A stretch of 64,000 nt of DNA from Mogibacterium sp. Lineage in GTDB: Bacteria; Bacillota; Clostridia; Peptostreptococcales; Anaerovoracaceae. This document shows positions 9,312-28,859 of the stretch, piece by piece. The stretch covers positions 1-64,000 of the forward strand of contig JAFRKO010000042.1 of the NCBI GenBank assembly GCA_017431685.1, written 5' to 3'. A program made the position numbers and the translations under genes. Under the pieces are notes generated by a model. It was not told where the DNA came from. It did not search any database and worked only from the letters and a program-made list of their open reading frames with translations. Positions within the stretch are counted from its first letter, which is position 1. Each line of letters begins with the position of its first letter.

Positions 9312-10037
9312 TTGAATAATTTCAAAAGCTATATAACAGATACCGTAGGAGTGATATCTCTACTAACTGTGGGAATTGCACTCAAAAACGCAAAAGACAA
9401 AAGGGCCGATGATATAGTTGGGCACAAGCAGGGGCTTTATGAGGTATACATCAAAAGGCCTCAAGATTTCTTCTTTGCGCTTATCGCAATAATTGTTCTT
9501 AGCCCTGTCTTCGCAGGAGCAGCTTTAGCAGTAAGGATCATGCTAGGATCACCTGTGCTATTCACACAGGAAAGGCCGGGGTTAAATGGAAAAGCCTTTA
9601 AAATGTACAAGTTTCGAACCATGAAAAATGAATATGATGTTAATGGAGATTTATTGTCTGATGAGGAAAGGCTTACAGAATTCGGTAAGGCTCTTAGAGC
9701 GACATCGATTGATGAACTTCCCGAGCTAATAAACATTGTAAAAGGAGAGATGTCATTTGTCGGCCCACGACCCTTATTGATGCGGTATCTCGATAGATAT
9801 AATGAAAGACAAGCAAGAAGGCATGAGGTTAGACCAGGCATTACTGGATTGGCTCAGATTCATGGTAGAAATTCTATTTCTTGGGATGAAAAGTTTGAAT
9901 GGGATGTGATATATATTGATAATATTACTTTTGCAAGTGATGTAAAAATAGTTTTAGATACTATTAAAGTAGTATTGAAGAAAGAGGGAATACATTCAGC
10001 CTCATCGGTAACTATGAATGAATTTACTGGTGAATAG
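9312..10037 (+). CDS. Undecaprenyl-phosphate sugar-1-phosphate transferase (PglC-like)
   Basis: A 241-residue bacterial sugar transferase (monotopic phosphoglycosyl transferase). A hydrophobic re-entrant segment (about 52-75) is followed by FTQERPGLNGKAFKMYKFRT, the catalytic Asp-Glu pair in TSIDELPEL, VGPRPLL and RPGITGLAQIHGRN. The known reaction moves a sugar-1-phosphate from UDP-sugar to undecaprenyl phosphate, starting a repeat unit. With the bacillosamine-type genes around it, the substrate is probably UDP-diNAcBac or a relative. The start is TTG at 9312 after AGAGAGG. About 45 residues precede the KRPQDFFF segment where PglC proteins usually begin, so it has an N-terminal extension or a later start. 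Confidence 0.9.
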   Translation: MNNFKSYITDTVGVISLLTVGIALKNAKDKRADDIVGHKQGLYEVYIKRPQDFFFALIAIIVLSPVFAGAALAVRIMLGSPVLFTQERPGLNGKAFKMYKFRTMKNEYDVNGDLLSDEERLTEFGKALRATSIDELPELINIVKGEMSFVGPRPLLMRYLDRYNERQARRHEVRPGITGLAQIHGRNSISWDEKFEWDVIYIDNITFASDVKIVLDTIKVVLKKEGIHSASSVTMNEFTGE

Positions 10038-10057
10038 GGTAATTGGGGGCTTTAGGG

Positions 10058-10720
10058 ATGAGAGATATAATAGTAATAGGAGCCGGAGGGCTTGGAAGGG
10101 AAGTGGCTTGGTTGATTGAGCGAATCAACTTAAACCGTCCTACTTGGAATATGAAAGGATATTTGGATGATAAGGAAGACATAATTGGGAAAAAAGTAAA
10201 TGGATATGCTGTTCTTGGCAACGTATCATTGATCGAATCTTTCCCTGAAGCTTTTTTTGTGTGCGCGGTAGGATCATCTGTAATTCGTGAGAAGATAGTT
10301 GAGCGCGCAAAAAGATGCAATCCGTTGATTAGATTTGCAACATTAATAGACCCAAGTGTTTATGTTTCTAAATCTGTTGTTATAGAAGCAGGAAGTATAA
10401 TATGTATAAATAGTGTTGTCACAGTAGATATACACATTGGTGAACATGTCATTATTAATTATGGCAGCACAATAGGACATGATGCTAAGATAAATGATTT
10501 TGTAACACTATATCCAAGCGTTAACGTTTCCGGTGCGGTTACCATTAGGCGTTGCTCGGAGGTAGGAGTTGGATCACAAATAATACAAGGAAAAACAATT
10601 AATGAAAACTCAATAATCGGCGCGGGAGCAGTAGTGACACACGATGTCCCTAAAGGGAGTGTTGTAGCCGGAGTTCCAGCAAAGGCAATTAATATAAAGA
10701 TAAAAAAAGAGGAGGCATAA
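10058..10720 (+). CDS. NeuD/PglD-family sugar N-acyltransferase (left-handed beta-helix)
   Basis: A 220-residue protein with an N-terminal Rossmann-like nucleotide-sugar domain (VIGAGGLGREV at residues 6-16) and a C-terminal hexapeptide beta-helix. STIGHD near residue 149 holds the likely catalytic His, and GAGAVVTHDVP with VAGVPAK closes the fold. PglD N-acetylates the 4-amino group of the UDP-sugar; that is the most likely role because PglF, PglE and PglC homologues precede it. I chose ATG 10058 over the upstream TTG at 10043 because MRDIIVIGAGG is the natural family start. Base composition here is more AT-rich than in the flanking genes. Confidence 0.88.
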   Translation: MRDIIVIGAGGLGREVAWLIERINLNRPTWNMKGYLDDKEDIIGKKVNGYAVLGNVSLIESFPEAFFVCAVGSSVIREKIVERAKRCNPLIRFATLIDPSVYVSKSVVIEAGSIICINSVVTVDIHIGEHVIINYGSTIGHDAKINDFVTLYPSVNVSGAVTIRRCSEVGVGSQIIQGKTINENSIIGAGAVVTHDVPKGSVVAGVPAKAINIKIKKEEA

Positions 10721-10728
10721 TAATAAGG

Positions 10729-11373
10729 ATGTCAAAATTCGTTCTCTTAGGGGGAGGGGGATTTTCACTAGAGTTACAAAGTTTCATGAAAGAAGATGGG
10801 CATAAAGTATTGGGATATTATGCCCTAGAAGAAAGCGCGGATCTAAAAGGTGTTATTCCTTGGTTAGGGAGTACGGATTGTGCAAAGTCTAGTACTCTAG
10901 ATAGAAGCGCGGAATATATCGTAGCAGTAAGATTGCTAAAATATAGACGTAAATTTATTAAGTTTATCAAGGACAATCAACTAAAAGCGGGGACCTTTAT
11001 TCACAGCGAAGCATACTGCTCACCATCAGTGCAATTAGGGTCTGGAGCAGTTGTTTTTCCAAGAGCTATGCTATCAGGCAACGCTAAGGCAGGTGAGTTC
11101 TTGTTTATGGATAGTCTCTCTATTATCAGTCACGGAGATGTACTGGGCAACAATGTGGTGATTGGGCCTTCCGTAACTATTTGTGGTGATTGTATGATTG
11201 GAGATAATGTAACATTTGGAGTTAACTCTGCTATACTTCCAGGAACAGTAATAGAATCCAATTGCGAAATAGCGGTTAACACTTATCCAACAAGATTTGT
11301 AAAAGAAAACAGTACAATTTTGACACAGCCTGGGAAGAATATCGGGATTGTTTTTAACAAGAATTTTAGGTAG
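10729..11373 (+). CDS. Second NeuD-like acyltransferase
   Basis: A 214-residue relative of the preceding protein with the same plan: an N-terminal FVLLGGGGFSLE nucleotide-binding loop, then hexapeptide repeats (about 95-190) with SIISHGD holding the presumed catalytic His. It diverges strongly from its neighbour, and the C-terminus ends in GKNIGIVFNKNFR in place of the usual VPAK clamp. Two such enzymes in tandem, directly before a carrier protein and a ligase, suggest that one uses acetyl-CoA and the other a special acyl donor. This is inference; the acyl group cannot be read from sequence. Confidence 0.8.
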   Translation: MSKFVLLGGGGFSLELQSFMKEDGHKVLGYYALEESADLKGVIPWLGSTDCAKSSTLDRSAEYIVAVRLLKYRRKFIKFIKDNQLKAGTFIHSEAYCSPSVQLGSGAVVFPRAMLSGNAKAGEFLFMDSLSIISHGDVLGNNVVIGPSVTICGDCMIGDNVTFGVNSAILPGTVIESNCEIAVNTYPTRFVKENSTILTQPGKNIGIVFNKNFR

Positions 11374-11384
11374 AGGTCTATATT

Positions 11385-11624
11385 ATGAGCAACACAATTA
11401 ATGATGTAAGAGCACTAGCAGAGTCTGTAGGAGCGAACCTGTCAGGCTGCGATAACCAGACTAACCTTTTTGAGGAAGGAATAATAGATTCATTACAGAT
11501 AGCATTGATGGTAGGAGAAATCGAAAAGAAGTACAGTTTTCAATTTGAACTGGATGAAATTAACCCTGATGTTTTCGAAAGTATTGAAAGTATTTCAGCA
11601 TTTATAGATAAAAAAAGGAAGTAG
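11385..11624 (+). CDS. Acyl/aminoacyl carrier protein
   Basis: A 79-residue carrier protein with the phosphopantetheine site GIIDSLQ (Ser at about residue 37) and four-helix spacing. Its size fits both acyl carrier proteins and DltC-type D-alanyl carriers. It sits 11 bp after the second NeuD-like gene and 16 bp before an adenylating ligase, so ligase and carrier form a functional pair. A phosphopantetheinyl transferase is not in the window and must come from elsewhere in the genome. Confidence 0.88.
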   Translation: MSNTINDVRALAESVGANLSGCDNQTNLFEEGIIDSLQIALMVGEIEKKYSFQFELDEINPDVFESIESISAFIDKKRK

Positions 11625-11640
11625 AGATAGTACTCTTAAA

Positions 11641-13161
11641 ATGGAAAAATTAATAACAGATTTTCTTGATAAAGCAGTAGATCTTTGTCCAGATAAAACA
11701 GTTTTTATAGAAAAAGATAATAAGGTAACATACAAGGAACTGCGCATTTATGCACAAGCGATTGCAAGAGCACTTGAAGAAAGAAGATTACTTCGCAAGC
11801 CAGTTGCGGTTTTTTTTGAAAAAAGCATTATGTGTGTTGAGACCTTTCTCGGGGTTGCATACAGTGGCAACTTTTATTGCTTGATTGACATAGACATGCC
11901 TGATGCGAGAGCCAAGACAATGCTTGATGCGCTAAAACCGTCGTTGCTGATAACAGACAAGAGACATGCAAGCAGGGCGAAAAAAATCACAAAAGAAATA
12001 CCCATATTAATAGTTGAGGAACAGATTGATCTGTACTATGGACAAATAGTATGCAAAGACCTTAGAACGTCATTGCTTTCTGAGGATATTTTATATATCT
12101 TGTTTACTTCTGGCTCGACAGGTATTCCTAAAGGCGTTATAACATCTCACAGAGCGCTAATAAGCTATGTAAATTCTGTCGCTGAAGCGTATAGACTTGA
12201 TGAAAATACAATTATAGGTAATCAAGTACCATTTTACTATGTAATGTCGATATTTGATATATATGCGACTATAGCGATACGAGCTCAGATGCACATTATT
12301 CCAAGAAAGTATTTTGCTTTCCCGGGGATGGTAGTTAGATACATTCATTACAACAATATCAACACTATTAATTGGGTCCCATCAGCTTTAGCACTTGTTT
12401 CAAATGTTAATGGCTTTAAAGCAGCGGATATATCTTGTGTTAAGACAGTGTTGTTCGGCGGGGAGGTTATGCCCGTAAAACACCTTAACGCATGGCGCAG
12501 GGTTCTTCCAAATGCCTCTTTTTTTAATGGATATGGCTCAACGGAGTGCACTGAGGCGAGTTTGTTTTATGAAGTTAACAGAGAATTCAACGAAGGGGAT
12601 GTTATCCCAATTGGTAGGCCATATTCAAATACTGAGGCTCTGGTTTTTAATGAAGAGAATAAGATTGTTGAAAATGAGGTAGGAGAGTTATATATTAGGA
12701 GTGATGCTCTAAGTTATGGTTATTATAGAGATAACAGTTTAACGGACAAAGTTTTTATCCAAAATCCTTTACATAACAGATTTAGAGATATTGTATATAA
12801 GACCGGGGACCTCGTTAGATATAATCAGTATGGTGAAATAGAGTATATTGGCAGAATAGATGATCAAATAAAGCATATGGGGCGAAGAATCGCGCTCGGG
12901 GAAATAGAAGCCAACGTTTCCTCAATCAATGGGGTAAGAGAAAATTGCTGTATTTATGATAACAACAAGCAGCAAATAGTACTTTTCTTTTCCGGAGAAA
13001 TAGAAAGCGAAAAGATAGTTAATGAGTTAAAAAAAACAATTCCAGATTACATGCTTCCTACAAGATGGGAACAAGTAAAGGAATTACCACGCAATCCAAA
13101 CGGAAAGATTGATAGATCGCAGTTATCCGGTTGGCTGAGTTCATTAAATAATGAAAAGTGA
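11641..13161 (+). CDS. AMP-forming acyl/aminoacyl adenylating ligase (DltA-like)
   Basis: A 506-residue ANL-superfamily enzyme with the core motifs in order: FTSGSTGIPKG (about 158-168), GYGSTE (about 299), YKTGDLVRY and GRIDDQIKHMGRRI (about 384-420), and the C-terminal lysine motif NPNGKID. It would adenylate an acid and load it on the carrier protein encoded just upstream. Length and layout match stand-alone DltA and NRPS A domains. No DltB or DltD gene lies beside it; the nearest MBOAT and SGNH genes are 22 kb away. The substrate may be D-Ala, another amino acid or a hydroxy acid. Confidence 0.88.
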   Translation: MEKLITDFLDKAVDLCPDKTVFIEKDNKVTYKELRIYAQAIARALEERRLLRKPVAVFFEKSIMCVETFLGVAYSGNFYCLIDIDMPDARAKTMLDALKPSLLITDKRHASRAKKITKEIPILIVEEQIDLYYGQIVCKDLRTSLLSEDILYILFTSGSTGIPKGVITSHRALISYVNSVAEAYRLDENTIIGNQVPFYYVMSIFDIYATIAIRAQMHIIPRKYFAFPGMVVRYIHYNNINTINWVPSALALVSNVNGFKAADISCVKTVLFGGEVMPVKHLNAWRRVLPNASFFNGYGSTECTEASLFYEVNREFNEGDVIPIGRPYSNTEALVFNEENKIVENEVGELYIRSDALSYGYYRDNSLTDKVFIQNPLHNRFRDIVYKTGDLVRYNQYGEIEYIGRIDDQIKHMGRRIALGEIEANVSSINGVRENCCIYDNNKQQIVLFFSGEIESEKIVNELKKTIPDYMLPTRWEQVKELPRNPNGKIDRSQLSGWLSSLNNEK

Positions 13162-13226
13162 ACGATAACAGCAATGTTACATAAGAATTAGTAATTATAG
13201 CAAAAGCATCCTACTCATCTAATGAT

Positions 13227-14489
13227 ATGAAAAATATTTGGATATTAAATCACTATGCAGGGGACTCTTTCTTTTCGAAAAATGGGAGACACTATTCATT
13301 TGCTCATTTTTTTGAGATAAATGGATATAAGCCAACTGTTTTTTGTGCAAATTCTAAGCATGAATCAAAAGGCCATTTTTTCGATAATAGCAGACTATAT
13401 CAGGAATATACCTGCGATACTATAAATGTCCCATTTGTTTTTGTTAAGGCAAGATCATATTCTGGCAATGGCAAAGCAAGATTGATGAATATGTTAGATT
13501 TTTTTAGAAACGTTAAACTTGCTGCTAAGAAATATGCAAAAGAAAACGGAACACCCAATATTATTTATGCCTCCTCTGTTCATCCTCTTACACTAATTGC
13601 AGGGCTACAGCTGGCTAAACACTTTAAAGTGAAGTGTATATGTGAGGTTAGGGATTTGTGGCCAGAAAGCATAGTGGTTCTGCGCCCTAGTATAAATAGG
13701 CACAAGTTGTTACTAAAGATTTTATATTATGGAGAAAGATGGATTTATAAAAAAGCAGATGCAATCGTTTTTACTATGGAAGGCGGCTATCACTATATAG
13801 AAGATAAGGGATGGGAAAACGATGTTGATAAAAAAAAGGTTTTCTATGTAAATAACGGAGTAGATTTAGATGCTTTTGAGAAACATGTAATTGAAGATAC
13901 TATTATAGATGAGGACTTGCAAAATAATAGTGTCTTTAAAGTGGTATATACTGGCTCCATAAGAAAGGCCAATGGATTAGGAGAAATTGTTAATTGTGCA
14001 GAATTGTTAAAAAACGAGCATGGCATTAAGTTCTTAATATATGGGATCGGGGAGGATCTAGACCAATTGAGAGAAATCTGTGTTAGAAAAGGCGTAAACA
14101 ATTTGATGTTTAAGGGGAAGGTGGAGAATAGATTTATTCCATACATATTAAGTCATTGCAACCTTAATTTGCTGAATTACAGCCCAGAAGTGGCAAAAGT
14201 GTTTAAATATGGTAGCAGTCAGAATAAACTGTTTGAGTACTTAGCAAGCGGAAAACCAATACTGTCTGATACAAAGATAGAGTTTAGTGTAGTGGATAAG
14301 TATAGATGCGGAATAAATAAAAACATAAGTACAGCAGAAGAGTATGCCGACACTATAATTCAGTTTTATAAGATGGACAAGAAAAATTATGAAGCGATGT
14401 GTGAGAATGCAGCTTTAGCAGCAAAGGAGTATAATTACAAAAGCTTAGCTGAGAAGATGCTTGCGATAGTAAGTGATTTAGAAGTATAG
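13227..14489 (+). CDS. GT4-family glycosyltransferase (WbuB-like)
   Basis: A 420-residue GT-B fold enzyme. The N-terminal half contains ILNHYAG and EVRDLWPES, features of the WbuB-like group. The C-terminal half has VYTGSIRKANGLGE and a donor-binding region near KLFEYLASGKPIL, with the Glu that contacts the nucleotide sugar. It should add the second or a later sugar to the lipid-linked repeat unit on the cytoplasmic side. The gene is AT-rich like the five before it and has no clear ribosome site. Donor and linkage are unknown. Confidence 0.85.
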   Translation: MKNIWILNHYAGDSFFSKNGRHYSFAHFFEINGYKPTVFCANSKHESKGHFFDNSRLYQEYTCDTINVPFVFVKARSYSGNGKARLMNMLDFFRNVKLAAKKYAKENGTPNIIYASSVHPLTLIAGLQLAKHFKVKCICEVRDLWPESIVVLRPSINRHKLLLKILYYGERWIYKKADAIVFTMEGGYHYIEDKGWENDVDKKKVFYVNNGVDLDAFEKHVIEDTIIDEDLQNNSVFKVVYTGSIRKANGLGEIVNCAELLKNEHGIKFLIYGIGEDLDQLREICVRKGVNNLMFKGKVENRFIPYILSHCNLNLLNYSPEVAKVFKYGSSQNKLFEYLASGKPILSDTKIEFSVVDKYRCGINKNISTAEEYADTIIQFYKMDKKNYEAMCENAALAAKEYNYKSLAEKMLAIVSDLEV

Positions 14490-14517
14490 CAGAATAATTT
14501 AGATAAAAGGTAAAAAA

Positions 14518-15585
14518 ATGAGAATAGTAACTGTGGTTGGGGCAAGACCTCAATTCATTAAAGCAGCAGTTGTATCAAGAATATTGCGCCATAAGGCAAG
14601 CGAGATACTGATACATACAGGACAGCATTACGATTATAATATGTCGGACATATTTTTTGAAGAACTGGACATTCCAAAGCCTGATTACAACCTAGGGATA
14701 TCGGGAGGCAGTCACGGATCAATGACAGGAAGGATGCTCAGCGCCATAGAGGAATTGCTATTAAGAGAGGAGCCGGACAAACTGTTAGTTTACGGCGACA
14801 CTAACTCTACAATGGCGGCAGCTATCGCAGCTGTGAAACTTCATATACCTGTGTACCATGTAGAAGCAGGTAACAGGTTCGGAACACTTACTAGCCCAGA
14901 AGAGGTAAACAGGATAGTCACCGACCATGTATCGACTTGTCTGATGCCTTGCACAGAATCAGCAGCAGCATTTCTAGCAAAGGAGGGCTTGGGAGAAAAA
15001 ACTCAGATAGTTGGAGATCCAATGTACGATGCTTTCGTGTATTACGGAAGCAAGGTGACAGAAAAAGACAAGAACTCTTTATTCTCCTTTGATGGTGAAA
15101 AGGTCCCTAGACCTAAAGAATTCTACTATCTTACTTGTCACAGACAGGAGAACACTAATACTGACGATAAGCTCAGAGAGATACTGAAGGCAATGAATAG
15201 TCTGGATGCGCCTACTATCTATCCTGTGCACCCGAGAAATAAGGATAGAGCATTGAGAGTTAGCAAAGACCTCAATAACATAATACTTACACAGCCAGTA
15301 GGATACCTTACGTCGATTTCTCTAGTGAATGATGCAAATAAAATTGTGACAGACTCAGGCGGCTTGCAGAGAGAGGCGTTCTTCGCTGAAAAACAATGTG
15401 TGACTGTGCTTGACTTTGTTGTATGGCCTGAGACTATGATTGATAACAGAAATCAGCTATCTTCACCTGACAAAGATGCAATCCTTGCTAAACTTGATAA
15501 AAAGCAATCTATAAATAAACAGTACAAACCATTCGGGAATGGTCATTCAGGAGAGAAGATAGTAGAATTACTGCTTTCGGAATAA
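14518..15585 (+). CDS. wecB: Non-hydrolysing UDP-sugar 2-epimerase (WecB/WbpI-like)
   Basis: A 355-residue GT-B-like epimerase starting VVGARPQFIKAAVV. The segment IPKPDYNLGISGGSHGSMTG is typical of the WbpI branch, which acts on UDP-GlcNAc(3NAc)A, while classic WecB acts on UDP-GlcNAc. With the uronic-acid and 3-amino genes downstream, a WbpI role giving UDP-ManNAc(3NAc)A is plausible. The usual HVEAGLR motif reads HVEAGNRFG here, and SPEEVNR follows. The next gene, a nucleotide-sugar dehydrogenase, starts 15 bp downstream. Base composition becomes richer in GC from here. Confidence 0.9.
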   Translation: MRIVTVVGARPQFIKAAVVSRILRHKASEILIHTGQHYDYNMSDIFFEELDIPKPDYNLGISGGSHGSMTGRMLSAIEELLLREEPDKLLVYGDTNSTMAAAIAAVKLHIPVYHVEAGNRFGTLTSPEEVNRIVTDHVSTCLMPCTESAAAFLAKEGLGEKTQIVGDPMYDAFVYYGSKVTEKDKNSLFSFDGEKVPRPKEFYYLTCHRQENTNTDDKLREILKAMNSLDAPTIYPVHPRNKDRALRVSKDLNNIILTQPVGYLTSISLVNDANKIVTDSGGLQREAFFAEKQCVTVLDFVVWPETMIDNRNQLSSPDKDAILAKLDKKQSINKQYKPFGNGHSGEKIVELLLSE

Positions 15586-15600
15586 CACGGGGGAGATAAC

Positions 15601-16929
15601 ATGCAGTTTAACAACATTTACAAAGGATTGATAGCGGGAGAAGAGAAACTTGCTCTTGTAGGACTTGGTTATGTAGGTATGCCTATCGCCGTTGAGTTTG
15701 CAAAGCATATCCATGTCATCGGATTTGATATAAATGAAAATCGCGTAGAAGAATACAAAAACGGCATAGACTCTACAAACGAAGTTGGCGAAGCTATCAA
15801 GAATACTACAGTTGAATTCACAGCTGATCCCAAGAGGCTCAGAGAAGCAAAATTTCTGATCGTAGCAGTACCTACGCCTGTTAAAGAAGACAACAGCCCT
15901 GATCTCAGACCTGTTGAGGGCGCATCGAGGATCATAGGACAGAACCTCTCACAGGGCTCAATAGTCGTGTTTGAATCGACCGTATATCCAGGCGTTACAG
16001 AGGATATCTGTGTACCTATCATAGAGGAGGAATCCGGCCTCAAGTGTGGAGTAGACTGGAAGATCGGCTACTCGCCAGAGAGGATCAACCCGGGCGATAG
16101 AGTCCACACTCTTACGAATATAAAGAAGGTAGTATCTGGAATGGACGAGGAGTCTGCACGCGAGATAAAAAAGGTCTATGATATTGTCATTAAGGCAGGT
16201 ACATTCCCTGTATCTACAATCAAGACGGCAGAGGCAGTCAAGGTAGTCGAGAACAGCCAGAGAGATATTAACATCGCGTTTATGAACGAGATAGCCATGA
16301 TATGCGACAGGATGGGCATCGATACTTACGAGGTTCTTGCCGGGATGAACACAAAGTGGAACGCTCTTGGGTTCAAGCCGGGTCTCGTAGGTGGACATTG
16401 CATCGGAGTCGATCCGTACTATCTGACAAACGCTGCGGAGAAGCTGGGCTATCACAGCCAGATCATCCTCAACGGCAGACAGGTCAACGACAGCATGGGA
16501 GCTTTCGTTGCTGATGCAGCTATCAAGCATATGATAGAGGCAGGGATGGCTCCTAGGAAGGCGACTGTTGTAGTACTTGGTATTACGTTTAAGGAGAATT
16601 GCCCTGACACAAGAAACAGCAAGGTTGTAGATATCATCGACAGACTGAAAGAGTTCAACATCGATCCTGTTGTAACGGACAACTGGGCTGACCCTACTGT
16701 TGCAAAGAATGAATACAGTGTCGATCTCGTTCCTTATGAAGAGATACCTAAGGCAGACTGCGTTATTGTAGCGGTAGGCCACAACGAATACAGATCTATG
16801 TCAACGATGCAGCTCAAGAGGCTCTTCAAGGATGAGCTGGCCGATGATGAAAAGGTGTTAATCGATGTAAAGAGTCTGTATCGCATGGACGAGCTTGAGG
16901 CATCGGGTATGAGATTCTGGAGACTGTAA
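15601..16929 (+). CDS. UDP-N-acetyl-hexosamine 6-dehydrogenase (WbpA/WbpO/TviB-like)
   Basis: A 442-residue UDP-glucose/GDP-mannose dehydrogenase family protein. The NAD site is GLGYVGMPIAVEFA, followed by YSPERINPGD and the catalytic-cysteine motif GGHCIGVDPYYL. It oxidises C6 of a UDP-N-acetylhexosamine twice to the uronic acid, using NAD+. In the Wbp route this gives UDP-GlcNAcA, the entry to 3-amino-uronic acids. With the 2-epimerase just before it, a ManNAcA route is the alternative. The C-terminal domain (about 320-442) is complete. AGGGGGAG-type spacing before the ATG supports the start. Confidence 0.9.
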   Translation: MQFNNIYKGLIAGEEKLALVGLGYVGMPIAVEFAKHIHVIGFDINENRVEEYKNGIDSTNEVGEAIKNTTVEFTADPKRLREAKFLIVAVPTPVKEDNSPDLRPVEGASRIIGQNLSQGSIVVFESTVYPGVTEDICVPIIEEESGLKCGVDWKIGYSPERINPGDRVHTLTNIKKVVSGMDEESAREIKKVYDIVIKAGTFPVSTIKTAEAVKVVENSQRDINIAFMNEIAMICDRMGIDTYEVLAGMNTKWNALGFKPGLVGGHCIGVDPYYLTNAAEKLGYHSQIILNGRQVNDSMGAFVADAAIKHMIEAGMAPRKATVVVLGITFKENCPDTRNSKVVDIIDRLKEFNIDPVVTDNWADPTVAKNEYSVDLVPYEEIPKADCVIVAVGHNEYRSMSTMQLKRLFKDELADDEKVLIDVKSLYRMDELEASGMRFWRL

Positions 16930-16945
16930 GAGAGGAGACCCGCCG

Positions 16946-17860
16946 ATGTTATTATCGAAAGGACTGCCGAAAATCGGTATAGAGTGCAAGTGCTTCGACG
17001 AGAAGGAATTCGAGTCGCTCGGACTGGCTGGCTACAACGACGGCAAAAATGTCTGCACCTTCCTCGCCGCTGCAAAGTATGCAGCTGGCCTTTCGGAAGG
17101 AATAAGCATGATACTCACTTCGCAGAAGGTGTACGACGAGCTTATGGCTGCGGGAAGCTTTGGAGGAAGCTATGGCATCTGCATTGTGGATAACCCGAGA
17201 CTGACATACTTTCTGCTGCATAACGCGCTCTGCAATTCTGAGGAATACGCGCGTCCGCGCTATGAGTCGAAGATCGCCGAGAGCGCAAAGATCAGCCCTC
17301 TGGCTTACATTGCTCCATACAATGTAACGATAGGCGAGAATACCGTGATTGAGGAGTTCGTCTCGGTCAAGGAGAATACCGTGATAGGCGATGACTGTGT
17401 CATAAGGACAGGCACAAAGATCGGCGGCCCGGGATTCGAGATCAAGAATGACGGCACAAAGGCCATCACGGTTACGCATATCGGCGGAGTTAAAATCGGA
17501 AACAATGTTGAAATCCAGCAGAATTCCAACGTCGATAAAGCCATATATCCATGGGACGATACCATTATCGATGATCACGTCAGGATCAACACACTTGTGC
17601 AAATCGCTCATGGCGACAAGATCGGAAAGTTCACCGAGATAGTTGCTCACGCAAGTATACAGGGCAGAGTAAGGATAGGCGAAAACGTCTGGATAGGCCC
17701 TGGCTGCGTGATCAGAAACGGCATCTCGATAGGTGACAACGCCAGAGTTAACATGGGAGCTGTAGTCACGCTCAGCGTACCTGCAGGCGAGGCCGTCAGC
17801 GGCAACTTTGCAAGAACGCATGCTGCTCTTATTGAAGAAATGAGAATTTACAAGAAATGA
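16946..17860 (+). CDS. LpxD-like N-acyltransferase (left-handed beta-helix)
   Basis: A 304-residue protein. An N-terminal domain (1-105) precedes a long hexapeptide helix (about 105-290) with the LpxD-like block GGPGFEIKNDGTK, IGGVKIGNNVE, QIAHGDKIGK and HASIQGRV. In Gram-negatives LpxD moves a 3-hydroxyacyl chain from carrier protein to an amino sugar; this genome context shows no lipid A genes, so the acceptor is probably a capsule amino sugar. GAGGAG lies 9 bases before the ATG. Its stop overlaps the next start by 4 bp (ATGA), showing translational coupling. It may use the carrier protein encoded at 11385 or CoA thioesters. Confidence 0.82.
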   Translation: MLLSKGLPKIGIECKCFDEKEFESLGLAGYNDGKNVCTFLAAAKYAAGLSEGISMILTSQKVYDELMAAGSFGGSYGICIVDNPRLTYFLLHNALCNSEEYARPRYESKIAESAKISPLAYIAPYNVTIGENTVIEEFVSVKENTVIGDDCVIRTGTKIGGPGFEIKNDGTKAITVTHIGGVKIGNNVEIQQNSNVDKAIYPWDDTIIDDHVRINTLVQIAHGDKIGKFTEIVAHASIQGRVRIGENVWIGPGCVIRNGISIGDNARVNMGAVVTLSVPAGEAVSGNFARTHAALIEEMRIYKK

Positions 17861-18957
17861 AGAGATGTATTTTTCATTATCCCGGACCGATACAGGAAAA
17901 CCCGTCTTCAGGATCCGCAGTAAGACCCAACAGAATGCTGAACGCATTCAAGGCAATAGGATATGAGGTCGAAGAAGTTACGGGCTTCAGTAAAGAGCGG
18001 GCAGAGAAGATCAAAGAGGTCAGGAAGAAAATAAGAAATGGCGTAAAATACAACTTTGTATATTCCGAAAATACGTCTATGCCTACAGCGATGGCAGACA
18101 GTGACCATGTTCCGAGACATCCGGTGATGGACGAAGTATTCCTCAGGAAGTGCAGAAAAGCAGGAATCCCTGTGGGCCTGTTCTACAGAGATGCGTATTG
18201 GCAGTTCCCACTCTACAAGGAATCTGTAAAGTGGTTTGTGCCGATGGTGACTATCCCAATATATAAGAATGAGCTTAAGGGGTACAGAAAGTGTACAGAC
18301 GTTCTCTTTGTACCGTCCAACGAATTTGCGGAGGCGATAGGGTACAAAGGCAGATATCAGGAGCTGCCTCCGGGCGGAGATCCAATCAGCATAAATGAAG
18401 ATACAGAGAGAACAGATGACAGGATTAGAATCTTTTACGTTGGGGGCGTAAGTGGTCTTTACGACATTACGGTTCCGGTACAGATCATATCTGAATTTCC
18501 TGAGTACCGGCTGACGGTCTGCTGCGCTGAGAAAGATTGGGAAGCAAATGAAACACTGAAAGGCATAGTTGCAAAGATCGACAACATTTCAGTGATTCAT
18601 AAAAAGAAGCATGAGCTGGGGCCTTTCTATATACAGGCAGATATTGCGATGGCGTTTTTTGAGAGAAATGCTTACAGAGATCTGGCAATGCCTGTAAAGC
18701 TGTTTGAATACATAGGCTATGGAAAACCGGTTATTGCTACTGCAGGTACAGCTGCAGGCAGGTATATCAAAGATAATGATATTGGATGGGCTATCGATTT
18801 TGATTCTGAACAGCTCAGAACACTGCTCCGTTCATTGGCTAAAGACAGAAATATAATACGCACAAAGACAGATAAAACAATTGCTGTTGCTCCGGGCAAT
18901 ACCTGGGAGGCAAGAGCCCAAATGGTTGTAAAGACGCTTACAGAACTTAAGCAGTAA
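17857..18957 (+). CDS. Glycosyltransferase (GT4-like)
   Basis: A 366-residue protein with FHYPGPIQENPSSGSAVRP at the N-terminus, a central FYVGGVSGLYD loop, and a C-terminal donor region KLFEYIGYGKPVIATAGT typical of GT-B retaining transferases. It overlaps the LpxD-like gene by 4 bp, so the acylated sugar and this transfer step may be linked. Donor and acceptor are not predictable. The gene is followed by the 3-hydroxyacyl-CoA dehydrogenase gene after 42 bp. Confidence 0.82.
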   Translation: MKRCIFHYPGPIQENPSSGSAVRPNRMLNAFKAIGYEVEEVTGFSKERAEKIKEVRKKIRNGVKYNFVYSENTSMPTAMADSDHVPRHPVMDEVFLRKCRKAGIPVGLFYRDAYWQFPLYKESVKWFVPMVTIPIYKNELKGYRKCTDVLFVPSNEFAEAIGYKGRYQELPPGGDPISINEDTERTDDRIRIFYVGGVSGLYDITVPVQIISEFPEYRLTVCCAEKDWEANETLKGIVAKIDNISVIHKKKHELGPFYIQADIAMAFFERNAYRDLAMPVKLFEYIGYGKPVIATAGTAAGRYIKDNDIGWAIDFDSEQLRTLLRSLAKDRNIIRTKTDKTIAVAPGNTWEARAQMVVKTLTELKQ

Positions 18958-18999
18958 ATAAAGAAGAAGAAAAGAAATCATAAGTCATGAGAGGATAAC

Positions 19000-20304
19000 A
19001 TGAATATTCAGACAGTAACAGTAATAGGGGCCACAGGAACAATGGGAGCGAATGTCGCAGGGATATTTGCCTCCTTTGGGAATGCAAAGGTATTTTGTGT
19101 TGGCAGGGACATTGAGAAAGTCAGGAATACTATTCCCAGGATCATTGCTTCTGTGCGTGCCGACAGTATCGCAGATAATCTGGTTCCGGCTGATTACACT
19201 ATGCTGGATAAATGCGTAAGAGAATCGGATCTGATTTTTGAAAGCACTTCAGAAAACATACAGGTAAAGAAAGAAATCGCCAGGCTGGTATCTCAAAGTA
19301 TCAATGAACATGCAATAACATGTACGGGTACATCAGGACTATCGATCCATGAAATTTCCAGATGCTATCCGGAAGAAGTCAGAAAGCGTTTCTTTGGAGT
19401 GCACATGTTCAATCCTCCATATAGTCTGTCTTTATGTGAGCTGATATCAACAGAGGCGACATCCGAAACAGTTAAAAACGAGCTCCGAGAGTATCTTGAA
19501 AAAAAGCTGCTTAGAACAGTGGTTGAGGTAAAAGATTCCCCTGCGTTTCTAGGTAACAGAATAGGCTTTATGTTTATAAACGAAGCCATGCAATATGCCG
19601 AAAAGTATAAGGACAGTGGAGGGATAGACTATATCGATGCAATACTGGGTTCGTTCTCCGGCAGGTCGATGCCTCCACTTCTTACAGCGGATTTTGTTGG
19701 GTTGGATGTCCACAAGGCAATTGTTGATAATATCCACAATAACACTGACGATTATGCCAATGACTCTTTTACTCTGCCGGAGTTCGTTCAGACATTGATT
19801 GACAATGGCGCTTTAGGCAGGAAGAAGGGCGAGGGGCTATATAAAACTTTTTACTATGAGAATGGGCTGAAAAGAAAAACGGTATTGGATCTTAACAGTG
19901 AAGTCTATCGGGATAAGATAAAGTATGTTTTCCCTTTTTCAGAAAGAATGAAAAGACACATTTCGGAAGGGGATTATATGCTCGCGTTTGAGGCACTGAT
20001 CAACAACCATTCTCAGGAAGCAGAAATATGTCTTTCATTTTTGCTGAAGTTTATTATATATGCTGTTTATGCAGCTGATAAAATCGGAGACGGAATAGAC
20101 GCAGCAGACGATGTGATGGCAGCTGGCTTTAACTGGTGCCCTCCGCTGGCATTATATGAAGCGCTTTCTCAGGTTGCAGATGTCAGGGATCTTATCAGGG
20201 AAAGAACAGAATTATACTCCGTCGTGGATGTAGACAGATTGCTCGAAAAAATGGTGCCGTCAAAGTATGATTTCAGGAAATTTTTCAAGACAGGAAGACA
20301 GTAA
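19000..20304 (+). CDS. 3-hydroxyacyl-CoA dehydrogenase family protein
   Basis: A 434-residue NAD-dependent enzyme. An N-terminal Rossmann domain ([14 protein letters not shown]) is followed by GTSGLSIHE (about 109-117), the catalytic His in GVHMFNPP (His135) and the paired Glu in LCELIST (Glu147). [10 protein letters not shown] and DFVGLDV mark the 3HCDH C-terminal domain. These match the FadB/Hbd group, which interconverts 3-ketoacyl-CoA and 3-hydroxyacyl-CoA. The protein is longer than Hbd (about 280) because of a C-terminal extension. It overlaps none but lies 1 bp from the thiolase gene, so both act together. In a glycan operon it probably supplies a 3-hydroxyacyl group. Confidence 0.87.
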
Positions 20305-20305
20305 C

Positions 20306-21553
20306 ATGGATAAGGTATACATACTCGGTGGAGCTCAAACTGATTTTGAGAGGAACTGGAAAAAAGAAGGAAAAAATCTGGTCGCTCTGCTAAAGGAAGT
20401 GATCGCAGACGGACTGGATAATGCAAATATATCATATGACTGCATCAGGGAGCTTAACAACGATAACAGGATTGCTGTTTTTGTCGGAAATTTTATTGCA
20501 GAAAAATATGTGGAACAGGGACATCTTGGAGCATTTCTTACTGAGGTGGATTCGGCCTTTTACGGGGTGCCTTCTGCAAGATATGAGGCTGCCTGTGCTT
20601 CATCGTCAGTGGCGATTGATGCAGCGCAAACAAAAATAAGATCAGGAGATTATGACGTCGCAATAGTGGTTGGCTGGGAGCTGATGAAAACAGTAGATGC
20701 GAAAACAGGAGGAGACTTCCTCGGCCGCGCTGCATATTATGATAAAGAAAGCAAAGGAATAGAGCTCCCATTTCCAAAGCTGTTTGCTAAACTAGCAGAT
20801 GAAACGATAGAAAAGTATCAGTTAGATGAAAAGAGATATCTGAATGCACTTGCAGCAATCTCTGCCAATAATTACTCAAATGCGAAACGCAATCCTCTGG
20901 CACAGACGAGAAAGTGGTTCATGAGCTATGAGCAGGCCAGTAACAGAGGTACAAATACAAATATGATTGTGGGGGGACGCCTGGCTGTGTCTGATTGTTC
21001 ACAGATCACAGATGGTGCGGCAGTAGTAGTCCTTGCATCAGAAGGTTTTGTAAAAGAACAGAAGATAAAGAATAAGCCTGTCATTAAGGGCTTTGGGCAT
21101 CGTGTTGCACCACTTCAGTTTTCAAAAAAGATCGGGGAAAGCAGTAATTCGGAATATATTCTGCCATGGACAAGACAGGCTGTTCTGGATGCGTATAAGA
21201 GGAGCGGACTTTCCGTTGAGGACATTGATGTATTCGAGGCGCATGACTGCTTTACTTCGAGTGAATATGTTGCAATAAGCTGCTTTGGCCTGACAGAACC
21301 CGGCAAGGAATACGAAGCTGTTGAAAGTGGGCTGATTGCATTTGATGGCAAAAGGCCTATCAATCCGGGCGGAGGGCTTATCGGATGCGGGCATCCTGTT
21401 GGGGCAACAGGGACCAGAATGCTGCTTGATTGCTATAAGCAGCTTACAGGTGAAGCAGGAAGCTATCAGGTCAAAGGGGCTAATAATGCTCTCATGCTGA
21501 ATATCGGCGGAACTGCTACTACAAATTATGTGTTTATTATCGGCAATGAGTAG
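20306..21553 (+). CDS. SCP2-type thiolase family protein
   Basis: A 415-residue thiolase-fold protein. The nucleophilic Cys is in ACASSSVA (Cys97). AHDCFTSSE (Cys315) is the HDCF motif that in SCP2-type thiolases supplies the second cysteine, and [12 protein letters not shown] carries the GHP motif (about 362). The classical C-terminal CxGGG motif is replaced by NIGGTAT, consistent with the SCP2 branch. It would join or split acyl-CoA units. The start ATG 20306 follows GGAAGA and comes directly after the dehydrogenase stop. A thiolase and dehydrogenase pair could make 3-hydroxybutyryl-CoA from acetyl-CoA for sugar acylation (inference). Confidence 0.87.
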
Positions 21554-21573
21554 ATGAAAGGCATATTGATTCC

Positions 21574-22314
21574 ATGGATTTTACGTTTTCAGATTATCGA
21601 AAGTTGCTTGGGACATTGCAGGAAAAAGCATTTCTTCCAATCAGGTTCTGTGATACAGGTGATTATTCCGGTAGAGTCGCAATCATAAGGCACGATGTAG
21701 ATATGAGTCCGCAAAAGGCTGTTGACATAGGGTCTATCGAGAGTGAGACTGGAATAAAAAGCACTTTCTTTGTTTTGCTTTCATCACGCTACTACAATCT
21801 GGTGTCAGGCGAAAACAGGGAAGCAGTCAAAGAACTGATTAGACAGGGTCACGAAATAGGTTTGCATTTTGACGTCACTAATTATGATGAGGATTACTCT
21901 TTAGATGAATTATGTGATGCTATCAAACGCGAACGCCTGTTGCTGGAAAGTCTTTTCGACATACAGGTGAGAAGCATGTCGTGGCACATTCCCAAAAGGG
22001 AACTGATCGGAGTAAACATACCTGCGCTGGATGAAATAGGACTGCTTAATGCATATGATCCGGAATTTTATAATGGTTATAAGTATGTATCTGACAGTAT
22101 GATGAGATGGCGGGAACCAATAGATGAATACCTCGAAAAAGCCGCATATGAGAAGATGCAGATTCTTACCCATCCGATCTGGTACAGCTTCAAGCAGAAT
22201 AAAAAGGATCTTGAGATATTAAAAGCGCATCATTTCGGCGAAATAAAAAAGGACTGTATTTATTTGGACGCTATCAGACCGGGATATAAAGATATTTTGG
22301 AATTATCAGAATAG
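21574..22314 (+). CDS. Polysaccharide-deacetylase-like protein
   Basis: A 246-residue protein with an NodB-like layout: RHDVDMSP (about 38-45) holds the general base Asp and a metal Asp, and GHEIGLHFD (about 91-99) holds metal-binding His residues. ILTHPIW near the C-terminus supplies the last His. Related proteins sit in many capsule loci as predicted amide hydrolases. Here it could remove an acetyl group from an amino sugar so that another acyl group can be added by the adjacent LpxD-like enzyme. That order is inferred from position only. No signal peptide, so it acts in the cytoplasm. Confidence 0.8.
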   Translation: MDFTFSDYRKLLGTLQEKAFLPIRFCDTGDYSGRVAIIRHDVDMSPQKAVDIGSIESETGIKSTFFVLLSSRYYNLVSGENREAVKELIRQGHEIGLHFDVTNYDEDYSLDELCDAIKRERLLLESLFDIQVRSMSWHIPKRELIGVNIPALDEIGLLNAYDPEFYNGYKYVSDSMMRWREPIDEYLEKAAYEKMQILTHPIWYSFKQNKKDLEILKAHHFGEIKKDCIYLDAIRPGYKDILELSE

Positions 22315-22346
22315 TAAAAAAGGCAAATGTTCAGAGGAAGACTATA

Positions 22347-23240
22347 ATGGAAATATCAGTAAAAGAAATCGAAAAATGTCTTGAGGCAAATGGTATAGGA
22401 TACAAATATACCGGAGACAAAAGTGCAGCAGTAAAAGGCTTCTCTGCAATTAACAATTATAAAAACGATACGATAACCTGGATAGGGCGTAAAGAGATTG
22501 CTCAGGAGTATCATCCTGATGCATTACTGGTTATTGCCCAGGACGGGCTGGATGTCTCGTTCAGCAACATGTTTATATGTGATAACTCAAAAAAGGCTTT
22601 TTTTACGATTATCGAAACCTTTTTCAATGAGGACGTGGTGCTTACAGATGTAGGGAAAGGCACATATATAGGAGACAATGTAAAAATTGGCAAAAATGTT
22701 AAAATCGGACATAACTGTACGATAGACGGAAACGTTGAAATTGAAGACAATACAATTATTCATCATAATGTAACGATTATTAATAAAGTAAAAATAGGAG
22801 CAAATTGTGAGATTCAGTCTGGTGTCAGGATTGGTCATGATGGGTTTGCCTACTCGGAAGATGTGGACGGTATCAAAACAATGATAAAGCATCATGGTGG
22901 AGTAATAATCCATAACGATGTATTTATCGGATCAAATACTGAAGTTGCAAGAGGAACGATAGATGACACCGTGATTAATGAGGGCTGCAAGATTGATGCT
23001 TTGACTCATATTGCTCATAATGTAAAACTGGGGAAAAACAATGGAGTTATAGCTGGCTGCACGATTTATGGATCAGTCAGAACTGGGGACAATTGTTATA
23101 TAGCAACATCCGTCATCAGAGATCAGGCAGTTTTAGGCAATAATGCTTTTGTCGGAATGAACAGTACGGTCACAAAAGATATTCCTGATAACAGTGTGGT
23201 CGTAGGCAGTCCAGCAAAAGTTATTAGAACAAATAAATAG
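22347..23240 (+). CDS. Second LpxD-like N-acyltransferase
   Basis: A 297-residue protein with an LpxD-like N-terminal domain (about 1-100: AINNYKNDTITWIGRKE) and a beta-helix (about 105-285). RIGHDGFAYSED and HIAHNVKLGKNNGVIAG correspond to the LpxD catalytic and substrate regions; the central His residues in IGHDG and IAHN are kept. It ends with VVVGSPAKVIR. The best-known members transfer 3-hydroxyacyl chains from ACP to UDP-glucosamine derivatives. It follows the dehydrogenase, thiolase and deacetylase genes, which supports an acylation role. It is only distantly similar to the LpxD-like protein encoded at 16946. Confidence 0.83.
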   Translation: MEISVKEIEKCLEANGIGYKYTGDKSAAVKGFSAINNYKNDTITWIGRKEIAQEYHPDALLVIAQDGLDVSFSNMFICDNSKKAFFTIIETFFNEDVVLTDVGKGTYIGDNVKIGKNVKIGHNCTIDGNVEIEDNTIIHHNVTIINKVKIGANCEIQSGVRIGHDGFAYSEDVDGIKTMIKHHGGVIIHNDVFIGSNTEVARGTIDDTVINEGCKIDALTHIAHNVKLGKNNGVIAGCTIYGSVRTGDNCYIATSVIRDQAVLGNNAFVGMNSTVTKDIPDNSVVVGSPAKVIRTNK

Positions 23241-23291: not shown

Positions 23292-23858
23292 ATGGAAAAA
23301 TCCTACTTTGTACATCCAACCAGTATCGTTGATGATAACGTTGAGATAGGAGAGGGAACAAAAGTCTGGCATTTCAGCCACATCATGAGTGGAGCGAAAA
23401 TCGGAAAGAACTGCTCATTCGGACAGAATGTCAATGTCGGCAACAATGCTATCATTGGTGACAATTGTAGGGTACAGAACAACGTATCGATTTATGAAGG
23501 AATCGAGTTAGGAAATAACGTTTTCTGCGGACCTTCAATGGTATTCACCAATGACCCGTTCCCAAGAGCAGATTCAGATAAAGGAAAAGAATTCTGGAAA
23601 AAGACTATTATAGGAGACGGATCATCGATCTGTGCTAACGCTACTATTGTATGCGGTCATAACCTCGGAAAGAGAGCTATGGTTGCTGCGGGAGCTGTTG
23701 TCACAAAAGACGTTCTTGATCACGCGTTGGTTGCAGGCGTTCCTGCAAGAAGGATCGGATGGGTATGCGACTGCGGAACCAAGCTGGATAATGATCTAAA
23801 GTGCCCATATTGCGGCAAAGAGTTTAGAAAAACCGATTCCGGATTGACGGAGAAATAG
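23292..23858 (+). CDS. UDP-3-amino-sugar N-acetyltransferase (WbpD-like)
   Basis: A 188-residue beta-helix acetyltransferase. YFVHPTSIVDDNVEIGEG, WHFSHIMSGAKIGKNC and FTNDPFPRA are signatures of the WbpD/WlbB group, which acetylates the 3-amino group of UDP-GlcNAc3NA with acetyl-CoA. The C-terminus adds a small four-cysteine element (CDCGTKLDNDLKCPYCGK), which looks like a zinc ribbon and is frequent in this branch. AGAGGAG precedes the ATG. A GnnA/WbpB-like oxidoreductase and a WbpE-like aminotransferase follow one gene later. Confidence 0.9.
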   Translation: MEKSYFVHPTSIVDDNVEIGEGTKVWHFSHIMSGAKIGKNCSFGQNVNVGNNAIIGDNCRVQNNVSIYEGIELGNNVFCGPSMVFTNDPFPRADSDKGKEFWKKTIIGDGSSICANATIVCGHNLGKRAMVAAGAVVTKDVLDHALVAGVPARRIGWVCDCGTKLDNDLKCPYCGKEFRKTDSGLTEK

Positions 23859-28649: not shown

Positions 28650-28847
28650 CATCAGTACCAAATAGAAAGTGTTTCAGATAACGCATTCCCAGAAAAGGAC
28701 TTTGCACATAATGCTATCAGATATGTACGAACTGTTTTCGGCTGATAAAGGCAAGCCTTAGTGACAGGATGTTCTGCTAAATATTCTGAACATGTTGAAG
28801 CAGAAACGTTTGATAGGTTTGTCAAAGAACTCAAACAAAGCAACTGA
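28650..28847 (+). pseudogene. Remnant of an unidentified gene's 3' end
   Basis: One plus-strand frame reads about 65 codons with protein-like composition (IESVSDNAFPEKDFAHNAIR, then after two adjacent stops QALVTGCSAKYSEHVEAE and FDRFVKELKQSN) and ends in TGA at 28845. The double stop TGA-TAA at 28743-28748 breaks it. It looks like the tail of a gene lost by deletion. The family is not recognised, and chance is not excluded. Confidence 0.35.
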
Positions 28848-28859
28848 TAGCAGAAAACA

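What the first reader, a model, noticed from the sequence alone, without database searches (positions are those of the whole stretch)
10058..23240. Built-in acyl-group production for an amino sugar inside a Gram-positive capsule locus
Seen: two NeuD-like and two LpxD-like acyltransferases, a carrier protein with its adenylating ligase, a 3-hydroxyacyl-CoA dehydrogenase, an SCP2-type thiolase and a deacetylase-like protein lie among sugar genes in one orientation. Known: LpxD moves 3-hydroxyacyl groups from carrier protein; thiolase plus dehydrogenase give 3-hydroxyacyl-CoA; some dideoxyamino sugars carry 3-hydroxybutyryl or similar groups. Inference: the locus makes a hydroxyacyl or aminoacyl group and places it on a deacetylated amino sugar. 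I know of no described system with this gene set.
Basis: partly seen in the sequence, partly recalled or inferred. Interest (0 to 1): 0.78.

Follow-up and report, generated by a model that had tools for sequence, protein, structure and literature searches.

The report
Capsule locus with acyl-building gene pair
A gut bacterium's capsule genes include a gene pair that probably builds a small hydroxylated acid and hands it to a sugar-decorating enzyme; on-site acid supply is a known idea, but we did not find this version of it described.

Summary
The genes are real, but relatives split them into three modules rather than one eight-gene pathway.

(1) Dehydrogenase and thiolase (HAD-THL) form a rare, patchy cassette. 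In 32 relatives' loci THL follows HAD in 22 of 24 with room. Of 21 loci with 2.5 kb on both sides, 18 have an acyltransferase (NeuD, LpxD or GNAT type) within two genes, against 9 of 86 control genes. Active sites are invariant; no other thiolase matched in the genome. Best reading: (S)-3-hydroxybutyryl-CoA, put by NeuD1 on N-4 of the bacillosamine-type sugar made by PglF/PglE. That sugar is known elsewhere (PMC8074265).

(3) Ligase, carrier and NeuD2 were not found as a set in the 32 loci. The ligase is DltA-like with Val where Asp binds amino acids; it may serve NeuD2 or the MBOAT at 36099.

Pseudomonas syringae's viosamine island does a similar job with FAS-type enzymes (PMC3927599). Chemistry here is inferred.

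The parts
5831..7930 (+). PglF/CapD-like UDP-GlcNAc 4,6-dehydratase
   Evidence: PF02719 379 bits; PglF types within 3 genes of HAD-THL in some relatives
7949..9235 (+). PglE-like DegT aminotransferase (4-amino sugar)
   Evidence: PF01041; 82-83% relative in L015, the HAD-THL locus of the same genus
9312..10037 (+). PglC-like initiating sugar-phosphate transferase
   Evidence: PF02397
10058..10720 (+). NeuD1, PglD/VioB-type N-acyltransferase; proposed hydroxyacyl transferase
   Evidence: TIGR03570 over cut-off; best solved relative VioB 7txp; grouped with HAD-adjacent NeuDs (unresolved)
10729..11373 (+). NeuD2, divergent hexapeptide acyltransferase
   Evidence: PF00132; TIGR03570 109.2 bits, below cut-off
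11385..11624 (+). carrier protein (PCP/DltC-like)
   Evidence: PF00550
11641..13161 (+). adenylating ligase, DltA-like; Val at the amino-acid-binding Asp position
14518..15585 (+). UDP-GlcNAc 2-epimerase (WecB/WbpI-like)
   Evidence: TIGR00236 over cut-off
15601..16929 (+). nucleotide-sugar 6-dehydrogenase (TviB/WbpA-like)
   Evidence: TIGR03026 over cut-off; NF011729 (TviB) 426 bits, below its cut-off
16946..17860 (+). LpxDa, LpxD-like acyltransferase
   Evidence: TIGR01853 123.6 bits, below cut-off
19000..20304 (+). HAD, (S)-3-hydroxyacyl-CoA dehydrogenase
   Evidence: PF02737/PF00725; best solved relatives are 3-hydroxybutyryl-CoA dehydrogenases; catalytic residues invariant in 27 of 27 rows, window included
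20306..21553 (+). THL, SCP2-type thiolase; one base between HAD stop and THL start
   Evidence: NF004936 over cut-off; catalytic Cys/His invariant in 23 of 23 rows, window included; only PF00108 match in the genome
21574..22314 (+). DAC, divergent NodB-like deacetylase
   Evidence: PF01522 sub-threshold; family alignment; near LpxD-like genes in relatives
22347..23240 (+). LpxDb, LpxD-like acyltransferase
   Evidence: TIGR01853 181.2 bits, below cut-off
23292..23858 (+). WbpD-like acetyltransferase
   Evidence: PF00132; 65-66% relatives near LpxDb/DAC types in L092 and L095
24954..25910 (+). UDP-GlcNAc 3-dehydrogenase-like (WbpB-like)
   Evidence: NF040723 193 bits, below cut-off
25989..27110 (+). 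WbpE-like aminotransferase
   Evidence: PF01041
34074..36053 (+). AlgX-like SGNH protein, possible O-acylation partner
   Evidence: PF16822
36099..37529 (+). DltB-like MBOAT, alternative user of the ligase and carrier
   Evidence: PF03062; TIGR04091 137 bits, below cut-off

Best explanation
HAD-THL is a transferable acyl-supply cassette of glycan loci. THL condenses two acetyl-CoA to acetoacetyl-CoA, and HAD reduces it to (S)-3-hydroxybutyryl-CoA (both steps inferred from family and intact active sites). NeuD1 transfers the group to the 4-amino of the UDP-4-amino-4,6-dideoxy-GlcNAc made by PglF and PglE. PglC then loads the N-acylated sugar onto the lipid carrier as the first sugar of the repeat (inferred from gene order and family). 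The LpxD/deacetylase pair acts on a second sugar, probably a 2,3-diamino uronic acid. The carrier and ligase form a third module.
For: Adjacency: of 32 relatives' loci (2 of 34, at 27-30% identity, dropped), THL follows HAD in 22 of 24 with at least 350 bp after HAD. In the 21 loci with more than 2.5 kb on both sides, 18 have an acyltransferase within 2 genes (15 counting hexapeptide types only), against 9 of 86 control genes in the same loci (Fisher p 4e-11; hexapeptide only 5e-8). PglF-, DegT- or PglC-type genes lie within 3 genes in 13 of 21, against 18 of 86. HAD and THL identities correlate over 22 loci, window included (r 0.94; 0 of 1000 Mantel permutations reach it). NeuD1 is 52-58% identical to six NeuDs that sit directly before HAD, and 28-30% to the PglC-linked NeuDs of the similar loci L096 and L097, which lack HAD-THL. 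Among matches at E<=1e-40 in 296 family genomes it exceeds 50% only in G000 and G253, both with THL. Catalytic residues are invariant. The closest solved HADs are 3-hydroxybutyryl-CoA dehydrogenases. THL is the only PF00108 match in a 94%-complete genome. The product, (S)-3-hydroxybutanoyl on N-4 of QuiNAc4N, is a known sugar (PMC8074265 passages; also PMC3210612 passages).
Against: In this window HAD-THL lie 8 kb from NeuD1 and directly before DAC-LpxDb. In L016, L019 and L028 an LpxD-like gene, not a NeuD, follows THL. Three of 21 loci (L023, L024, L025) have no acyltransferase within two genes. NeuDs 38-45% identical to NeuD1 occur both with HAD-THL (L026, L027, L031, L033) and in stretches without it (L052, L079, L080). 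G272 has THL but no NeuD1 match at E<=1e-40. The NeuD1 clade has moderate support (96/91, 94/90) and is unresolved; holding NeuD1 with the other NeuD type was not rejected (p-AU 0.353). The genome has a second strong 3HCDH protein and three weak matches, so HAD is not the only possible reductase. No substrate, chain length or stereochemistry was measured.
Confidence: 0.6

Rival explanations
1. One reading: HAD-THL feed LpxDb, which N-acylates an amino group exposed by DAC on a uronic-type sugar. It could also happen in addition to NeuD1.
For: HAD-THL-DAC-LpxDb are contiguous here. LpxD-like genes directly follow THL in L016, L019 and L028, and a deacetylase lies within three genes in 9 of 32 loci (5 of 21 with full flanks against 2 of 86 controls, p 0.003). 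In L092 a MaoC-type hydratase sits between DAC and LpxDb, perhaps another hydroxyacyl-type supply.
Against: DAC and LpxD-like genes lie within two genes of each other in 6 of 6 other family genomes with DAC, none on the THL list. The LpxDs after THL in L016/L019/L028 are a separate clade from the window's LpxDb.
Confidence: 0.25
2. HAD-THL make a different group, for example a longer, branched or unsaturated acyl, or run more than once.
For: Bacteroidales relatives L024 and L029 have an enoyl-CoA hydratase directly before HAD. (3S,5S)-3,5-dihydroxyhexanoyl on bacillosamine N-4 is known (PMC3210612 passage). SCP2-type thiolases take varied substrates (recalled).
Against: The nearest solved HADs are named 3-hydroxybutyryl-CoA dehydrogenases. 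No such hydratase was labelled within two genes of the pair in the other 30 loci.
Confidence: 0.25
3. Ligase and carrier are a DltA/DltC-like pair that charges a non-amino acid for O-acylation by the DltB-like MBOAT and the AlgX-like protein of the same locus, not for N-acylation.
For: Of 19 family relatives of the ligase compared, 14 keep Asp, three have Ser (L056, L057, L061) and two Val (L059, L073). MBOAT genes lie near all three Ser-type ligases (L075, L076, L082). The window has a DltB-like MBOAT at 36099.
Against: NeuD2 is directly adjacent to the carrier gene; the MBOAT is 23 kb away. An MBOAT also lies near L060 (L078), which keeps Asp; of the six nearest relatives fetched (L056-L061), L058 and L060 keep Asp.
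Confidence: 0.45
4. HAD-THL are ordinary fatty-acid or butyrate genes that happen to lie in a capsule locus.
For: Both belong to metabolic enzyme families.
Against: Repeated adjacency to acyltransferase genes in loci of Clostridia and Bacteroidales; no other thiolase matched in the genome; rare and patchy (THL in 6 of 296 family genomes at E<=1e-30, own included; 1 of 390 other class genomes at E<=1e-100).
Confidence: 0.04

Closest known systems
Pseudomonas syringae viosamine island (vioA, vioB, vioS, vioR, acp, vioM, vioT; PMC3927599, passages and section 7 seen)
   Same: Local genes are proposed to make a 3-hydroxybutyryl-type group placed by a NeuD/VioB-type enzyme on a 4-amino sugar; the vioR mutant lacked modified viosamine.
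   Different: KAS III-, FabG- and ACP-type genes (vioS, acp assigned by homology in the paper) instead of a CoA-type thiolase and 3HCDH dehydrogenase; dTDP-viosamine; flagellin glycan. Stereochemistry may differ (recalled family specificity).
Acinetobacter qhbA/qhbB/gdr and weeI/J/K (PMC3628348, passages seen)
   Same: Dehydratase, aminotransferase and acyltransferase for UDP-QuiNAc4N carrying acetyl or 3-hydroxybutyryl.
   Different: The passages name no acyl-supply gene; the words 'CoA' and 'acyl carrier' do not occur in the main text.
Aeromonas veronii K133 O-polysaccharide and others it lists (PMC8074265, passages seen)
   Same: QuiNAc4N with (S)-3-hydroxybutanoyl at N-4, the product proposed here.
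   Different: Structure only in the passages seen.
Vibrio cholerae O1 tetronate-perosamine (PMC3441752, passages seen)
   Same: Dedicated genes (wbeL and neighbours) are predicted to make the acyl group for an amino sugar.
   Different: Different acyl group and sugar; no thiolase in the passages seen.
Anthrose operon (recalled; none of the 20 papers listed of 43 mentions anthrose)
   Same: An acyl-CoA enzyme sits with sugar aminotransferase and acyltransferase genes (recalled).
   Different: Enoyl-CoA hydratase rather than thiolase plus dehydrogenase (recalled).
dlt operon (DltA/B/C)
   Same: Ligase, carrier and MBOAT resemble DltA, DltC and DltB.
   Different: All below the curated cut-offs, and the D-Ala-binding Asp is Val.

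Membership tests
PglD/NeuD N-acyltransferase (NeuD1) | TIGR03570 curated cut-off 160.8 bits | tested here: met
   204.5 bits
PglD/NeuD N-acyltransferase (NeuD2) | TIGR03570 curated cut-off 160.8 bits | tested here: not met
   109.2 bits
LpxD | TIGR01853 curated cut-off 242.5 bits | tested here: not met
   LpxDa 123.6, LpxDb 181.2 bits
LpxD | transfers 3-hydroxyacyl from ACP in lipid A synthesis | not testable with these tools
   needs an enzyme assay
SCP2-type thiolase (PRK06289) | NF004936 curated cut-off 375 bits | tested here: met
   575.8 bits
SCP2-type thiolase (PRK06289) | catalytic Cys, HDCF His, CGHP Cys/His (motifs recalled) | tested here: met
   invariant in 23 of 23 rows of at least 380 aa
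3-hydroxyacyl-CoA dehydrogenase | PF02737 + PF00725 over cut-off; catalytic Ser, His, Glu, Asn (recalled) | tested here: met
   96.1 and 46.6 bits; invariant in 27 of 27 rows of at least 380 aa
DltA D-alanine ligase | TIGR01734 cut-off 559.85 bits and Asp at the alpha-amino-binding position | tested here: not met
   262.5 bits; Val in place of Asp
NodB polysaccharide deacetylase (DAC) | PF01522 cut-off 23.1 bits | tested here: not met
   19.5 bits
NodB polysaccharide deacetylase (DAC) | conserved Asp/His metal-site pattern (recalled) | tested here: inconclusive
   HDxD and further His invariant in 7 of 7 rows; no structure could be predicted
P. syringae-type viosamine acyl supply | KAS III and FabG-type reductase with ACP | tested here: not met
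   the window's supply pair is thiolase and 3HCDH

The most novel reading that the evidence does not exclude
HAD-THL is a glycan-dedicated, CoA-based chain builder that can act more than once. Two rounds of condensation and S-specific reduction would give a 3,5-dihydroxyhexanoyl-CoA, and (3S,5S)-3,5-dihydroxyhexanoyl is known on bacillosamine N-4. The cassette would then be an exchangeable supply unit that gut Clostridia and Bacteroidales combine with different acyltransferases (NeuD, LpxD, GNAT) and deacetylases (PIG-L, NodB) to vary their surface glycans.
Probability: 0.12. Interest if true: 0.78.

Novelty: new variant of a known kind. Interest (0 to 1): 0.57.

Why it matters
Many bacterial sugars carry 3-hydroxybutyryl groups, but in the papers seen here the source of the acyl-CoA was mostly not assigned to genes. 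A two-gene marker (HAD-THL) beside a sugar acyltransferase would let such groups be predicted from sequence in uncultured gut and rumen bacteria, and gives a simple enzyme set to test. It would also put a CoA-dependent route beside the FAS-type route of P. syringae, with acyltransferases of unrelated folds plugged into one supply pair.

Tried and rejected
One eight-gene pathway: rejected, because relatives split the genes into separate modules.

Ligase as an amino-acid activator: disfavoured by Val at the Asp position.

Ligase relatives in the class: none at E<=1e-140 in 390 other sampled genomes; in the family sample the best is 43%. The ligase/carrier/NeuD2 set could therefore not be studied by comparison.

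Plasmid-borne close relatives of HAD-THL: of 653 (HAD) and 697 (THL) plasmid records matched, none reaches 60% identity.

Literature: ten searches. In the listed titles and abstract beginnings I saw no paper on a thiolase/3HAD pair in a capsule or O-antigen locus. Three listings were capped (20 of 43, 12 of 34, 10 of 33 papers), and the library holds open-licence PMC papers only, so this does not show absence from print.

Promoter and terminator scan: counts equal to shuffles, no operon boundary inferred. No tRNA in the window. (a GNAT family in the own genome) mainly gave the genome handle.
Full report
OBSERVATION. The window is bases 1-64000 of contig C5 of a 2.74 Mb, 74-contig genome, 94.45% complete with 4.85% contamination. 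G253 is listed as same genus. Its contig length (122226) equals that of JAFWFU010000041.1, titled Mogibacterium sp. RGIG5700 (L015), so the host is probably Mogibacterium-like; 'Gram-positive' is inferred from that. THL most likely starts at 20306, with one base between it and the HAD stop (the relative's start agrees). NeuD1 most likely starts at ATG 10058.

SURROUNDINGS. Upstream lie PglF-, PglE- and PglC-type genes, which by family make UDP-4-amino-4,6-dideoxy-GlcNAc and load the acylated sugar onto the lipid carrier. Further genes fit a 2,3-diamino-uronic acid route: a TviB-like dehydrogenase, a 2-epimerase, a UDP-GlcNAc 3-dehydrogenase-like protein, a DegT aminotransferase and a WbpD-like acetyltransferase. 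That assignment is inference. An AlgX-like protein and a DltB-like MBOAT lie at 34074-37529.

THE HAD-THL CASSETTE. THL matched 6 of 296 family genomes at E<=1e-30, own included; the close ones are the own genome, G253 (77%) and G272 (70%, partial). It matched 1 of 390 other class genomes at E<=1e-100. A scan of named genomes with a HAD alignment gave 34 loci, by title mostly MAGs of Clostridia and Bacteroidales, many from rumen or gut. The scan used two short peptide patterns, so it is not exhaustive. I dropped L043 and L044 (27-30% identity). The remaining 32 loci come from 30 genomes (L011/L016 and L018/L036 share a MAG); one is titled Thermoguttaceae and may be misbinned. The window is not counted.

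In these 32, THL follows HAD in 22 of 24 with at least 350 bp left (misses L027 and L042). Of the 21 loci with more than 2.5 kb on both sides, 18 have an acyltransferase within two genes: 15 of hexapeptide type and 3 GNAT (L012, L032, L040). Controls were 86 genes more than five genes away in the same loci: 9 have one. Fisher p is 4e-11, or 5e-8 for hexapeptide only, 15 of 21 against 9 of 86. The GNAT labels rest on Pfam calls made only near HAD, and the HMM seeds were partly taken from genes beside HAD, so the hexapeptide figure is the fairer one. Loci without any acyltransferase within two genes are L023, L024 and L025. PglF-, DegT- or PglC-type genes lie within three genes in 13 of 21 (18 of 86 controls), deacetylases in 5 of 21 (2 of 86). 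Over all 32 loci the counts are 22 (acyltransferase), 20 and 9; 30 of 32 have at least one of the three.

Two deacetylase folds occur beside the pair: PIG-L (Pfam in L011, L016, L018, L036) and NodB type (Pfam in L014, L040 and G272's L004). HAD and THL identities correlate across 22 loci, window included (r 0.94, Mantel 0 of 1000). Active-site residues are invariant in the 27 HAD and 23 THL rows of at least 380 aa (window included; shorter or cut genes left out). The closest solved HADs are named 3-hydroxybutyryl-CoA dehydrogenases. Solved THL relatives include SCP2-type thiolases and an acetoacetyl-CoA thiolase. THL is the only PF00108 match in the genome. PF02737 has five matches over its cut-off: HAD, one other strong one in an oxidoreductase cluster on contig C49, and three weak partial ones.

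WHICH ACYLTRANSFERASE. NeuD1 is 52-58% identical to the NeuDs directly before HAD in L011, L013, L015, L030, L038 and L042. Trees group it with five of them (L042 left out as too short): support 96/91 of 28 rows and 94/90 of 18 rows, after leaving out long or partial rows. A 23-row tree left it unresolved, and an alternative grouping was not rejected (p-AU 0.353). L096 and L097 have a gene order much like the window's but lack HAD-THL, and their PglC-linked NeuD is only 28-30% identical to NeuD1. Against a clean rule, NeuDs 38-45% identical occur both with HAD-THL (L026, L027, L031, L033) and in stretches without it (L052, L079, L080).

By contrast, DAC and LpxD-like genes persist without HAD-THL. 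DAC was found in 6 other family genomes, none on the THL list, and an LpxD-like gene lies within two genes of it in 6 of 6. HAD was not searched separately in those genomes; none appears among the labelled ORFs of the fetched 19.5 kb stretches. In one of them (L092) a MaoC-type hydratase lies between DAC and LpxDb, so LpxDb-type enzymes may take hydroxyacyl groups elsewhere. The LpxDs that follow THL in L016, L019 and L028 form a separate clade. I therefore favour NeuD1, without excluding LpxDb.

LIGASE AND CARRIER. No carrier protein was labelled in the 32 loci. One ligase relative was counted on the + strand (L029); another, 38% identical over a 592-aa frame, lies on the minus strand of L040 and was outside that strand-limited count. 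The carrier model came from one sequence and ORFs under 75 aa were not used, so a small carrier could have been missed. The ligase is DltA-like but far below the DltA cut-off. The position that is Asp in the aligned NRPS domains is Val. Of 19 family relatives compared, 14 keep Asp, three have Ser (L056, L057, L061) and two Val (L059, L073). MBOAT genes lie near L056, L057 and L061, and also near L060, which keeps Asp. So the ligase probably charges an acid without an alpha-amino group, for NeuD2 next door or for the MBOAT at 36099. This is inference.

LITERATURE. PMC8074265 (passages) reports (S)-3-hydroxybutanoyl on N-4 of QuiNAc4N in Aeromonas veronii and lists other bacteria. PMC3210612 (passages) reports N-[(S)-3-hydroxybutyryl] and (3S,5S)-3,5-dihydroxyhexanoyl bacillosamine. 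PMC3628348 (passages) assigns qhbA/qhbB/gdr. PMC3927599 (passages and one section) describes vioS, vioR, acp and vioB. PMC3441752 (passages) covers tetronate. In the titles and abstract beginnings listed by ten searches I saw no paper on a thiolase/3HAD pair in such a locus; some listings were capped and the library is partial.

VERDICT. One eight-gene pathway is not supported. Shown: gene content, adjacency, invariance, distribution. Inferred: reactions, chain length, stereochemistry, sugar identity and acceptor.

Noticed in passing
L092:8561-10598 (minus strand): Deacetylase, MaoC-type hydratase and LpxD-like genes in a row in a locus without THL: perhaps another on-site hydroxyacyl supply, through an enoyl-CoA.
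   Followed up: partly
L024:9238-9996 and L029:9104-9961: Enoyl-CoA hydratase directly before HAD-THL in two Bacteroidales loci.
   Followed up: partly
L011:7682-9254: Formyltransferase and PIG-L deacetylase beside NeuD-HAD-THL, suggesting alternative acyl groups in one locus.
   Followed up: no
window 28652-29419, minus strand: Overlapping short ORFs, one matching part of Acyl_transf_3 (PF01757, just below its cut-off); looks like a broken acyltransferase gene. A 353-aa open relative of the family lies near PglC in L096.
   Followed up: partly
window 34074-37529: AlgX-like protein and DltB-like MBOAT, a probable O-acylation pair.
   Followed up: partly
window 596-2989: Secreted-looking protein with a 30-bp tandem repeat (about 2201-2528) coding Ala-Glu-Lys-rich repeats.
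   Followed up: no
window 3208-3684: IS200-like transposase (PF01797) upstream of the capsule locus.
   Followed up: no
window 9312-14489: Lower-G+C block (0.34-0.39) from PglC to the first glycosyltransferase, against 0.46-0.50 at 15601-17860; suggests mosaic assembly of the locus.
   Followed up: no
L081 (own genome contig C49): Second 3-hydroxyacyl-CoA dehydrogenase beside a short-chain dehydrogenase and an NADH:flavin oxidoreductase.
   Followed up: partly
L023:12544-13728 and L012:12986-14167: Uncharacterised nucleotidyltransferase (PF14907) as the next gene after THL in two loci.
   Followed up: no
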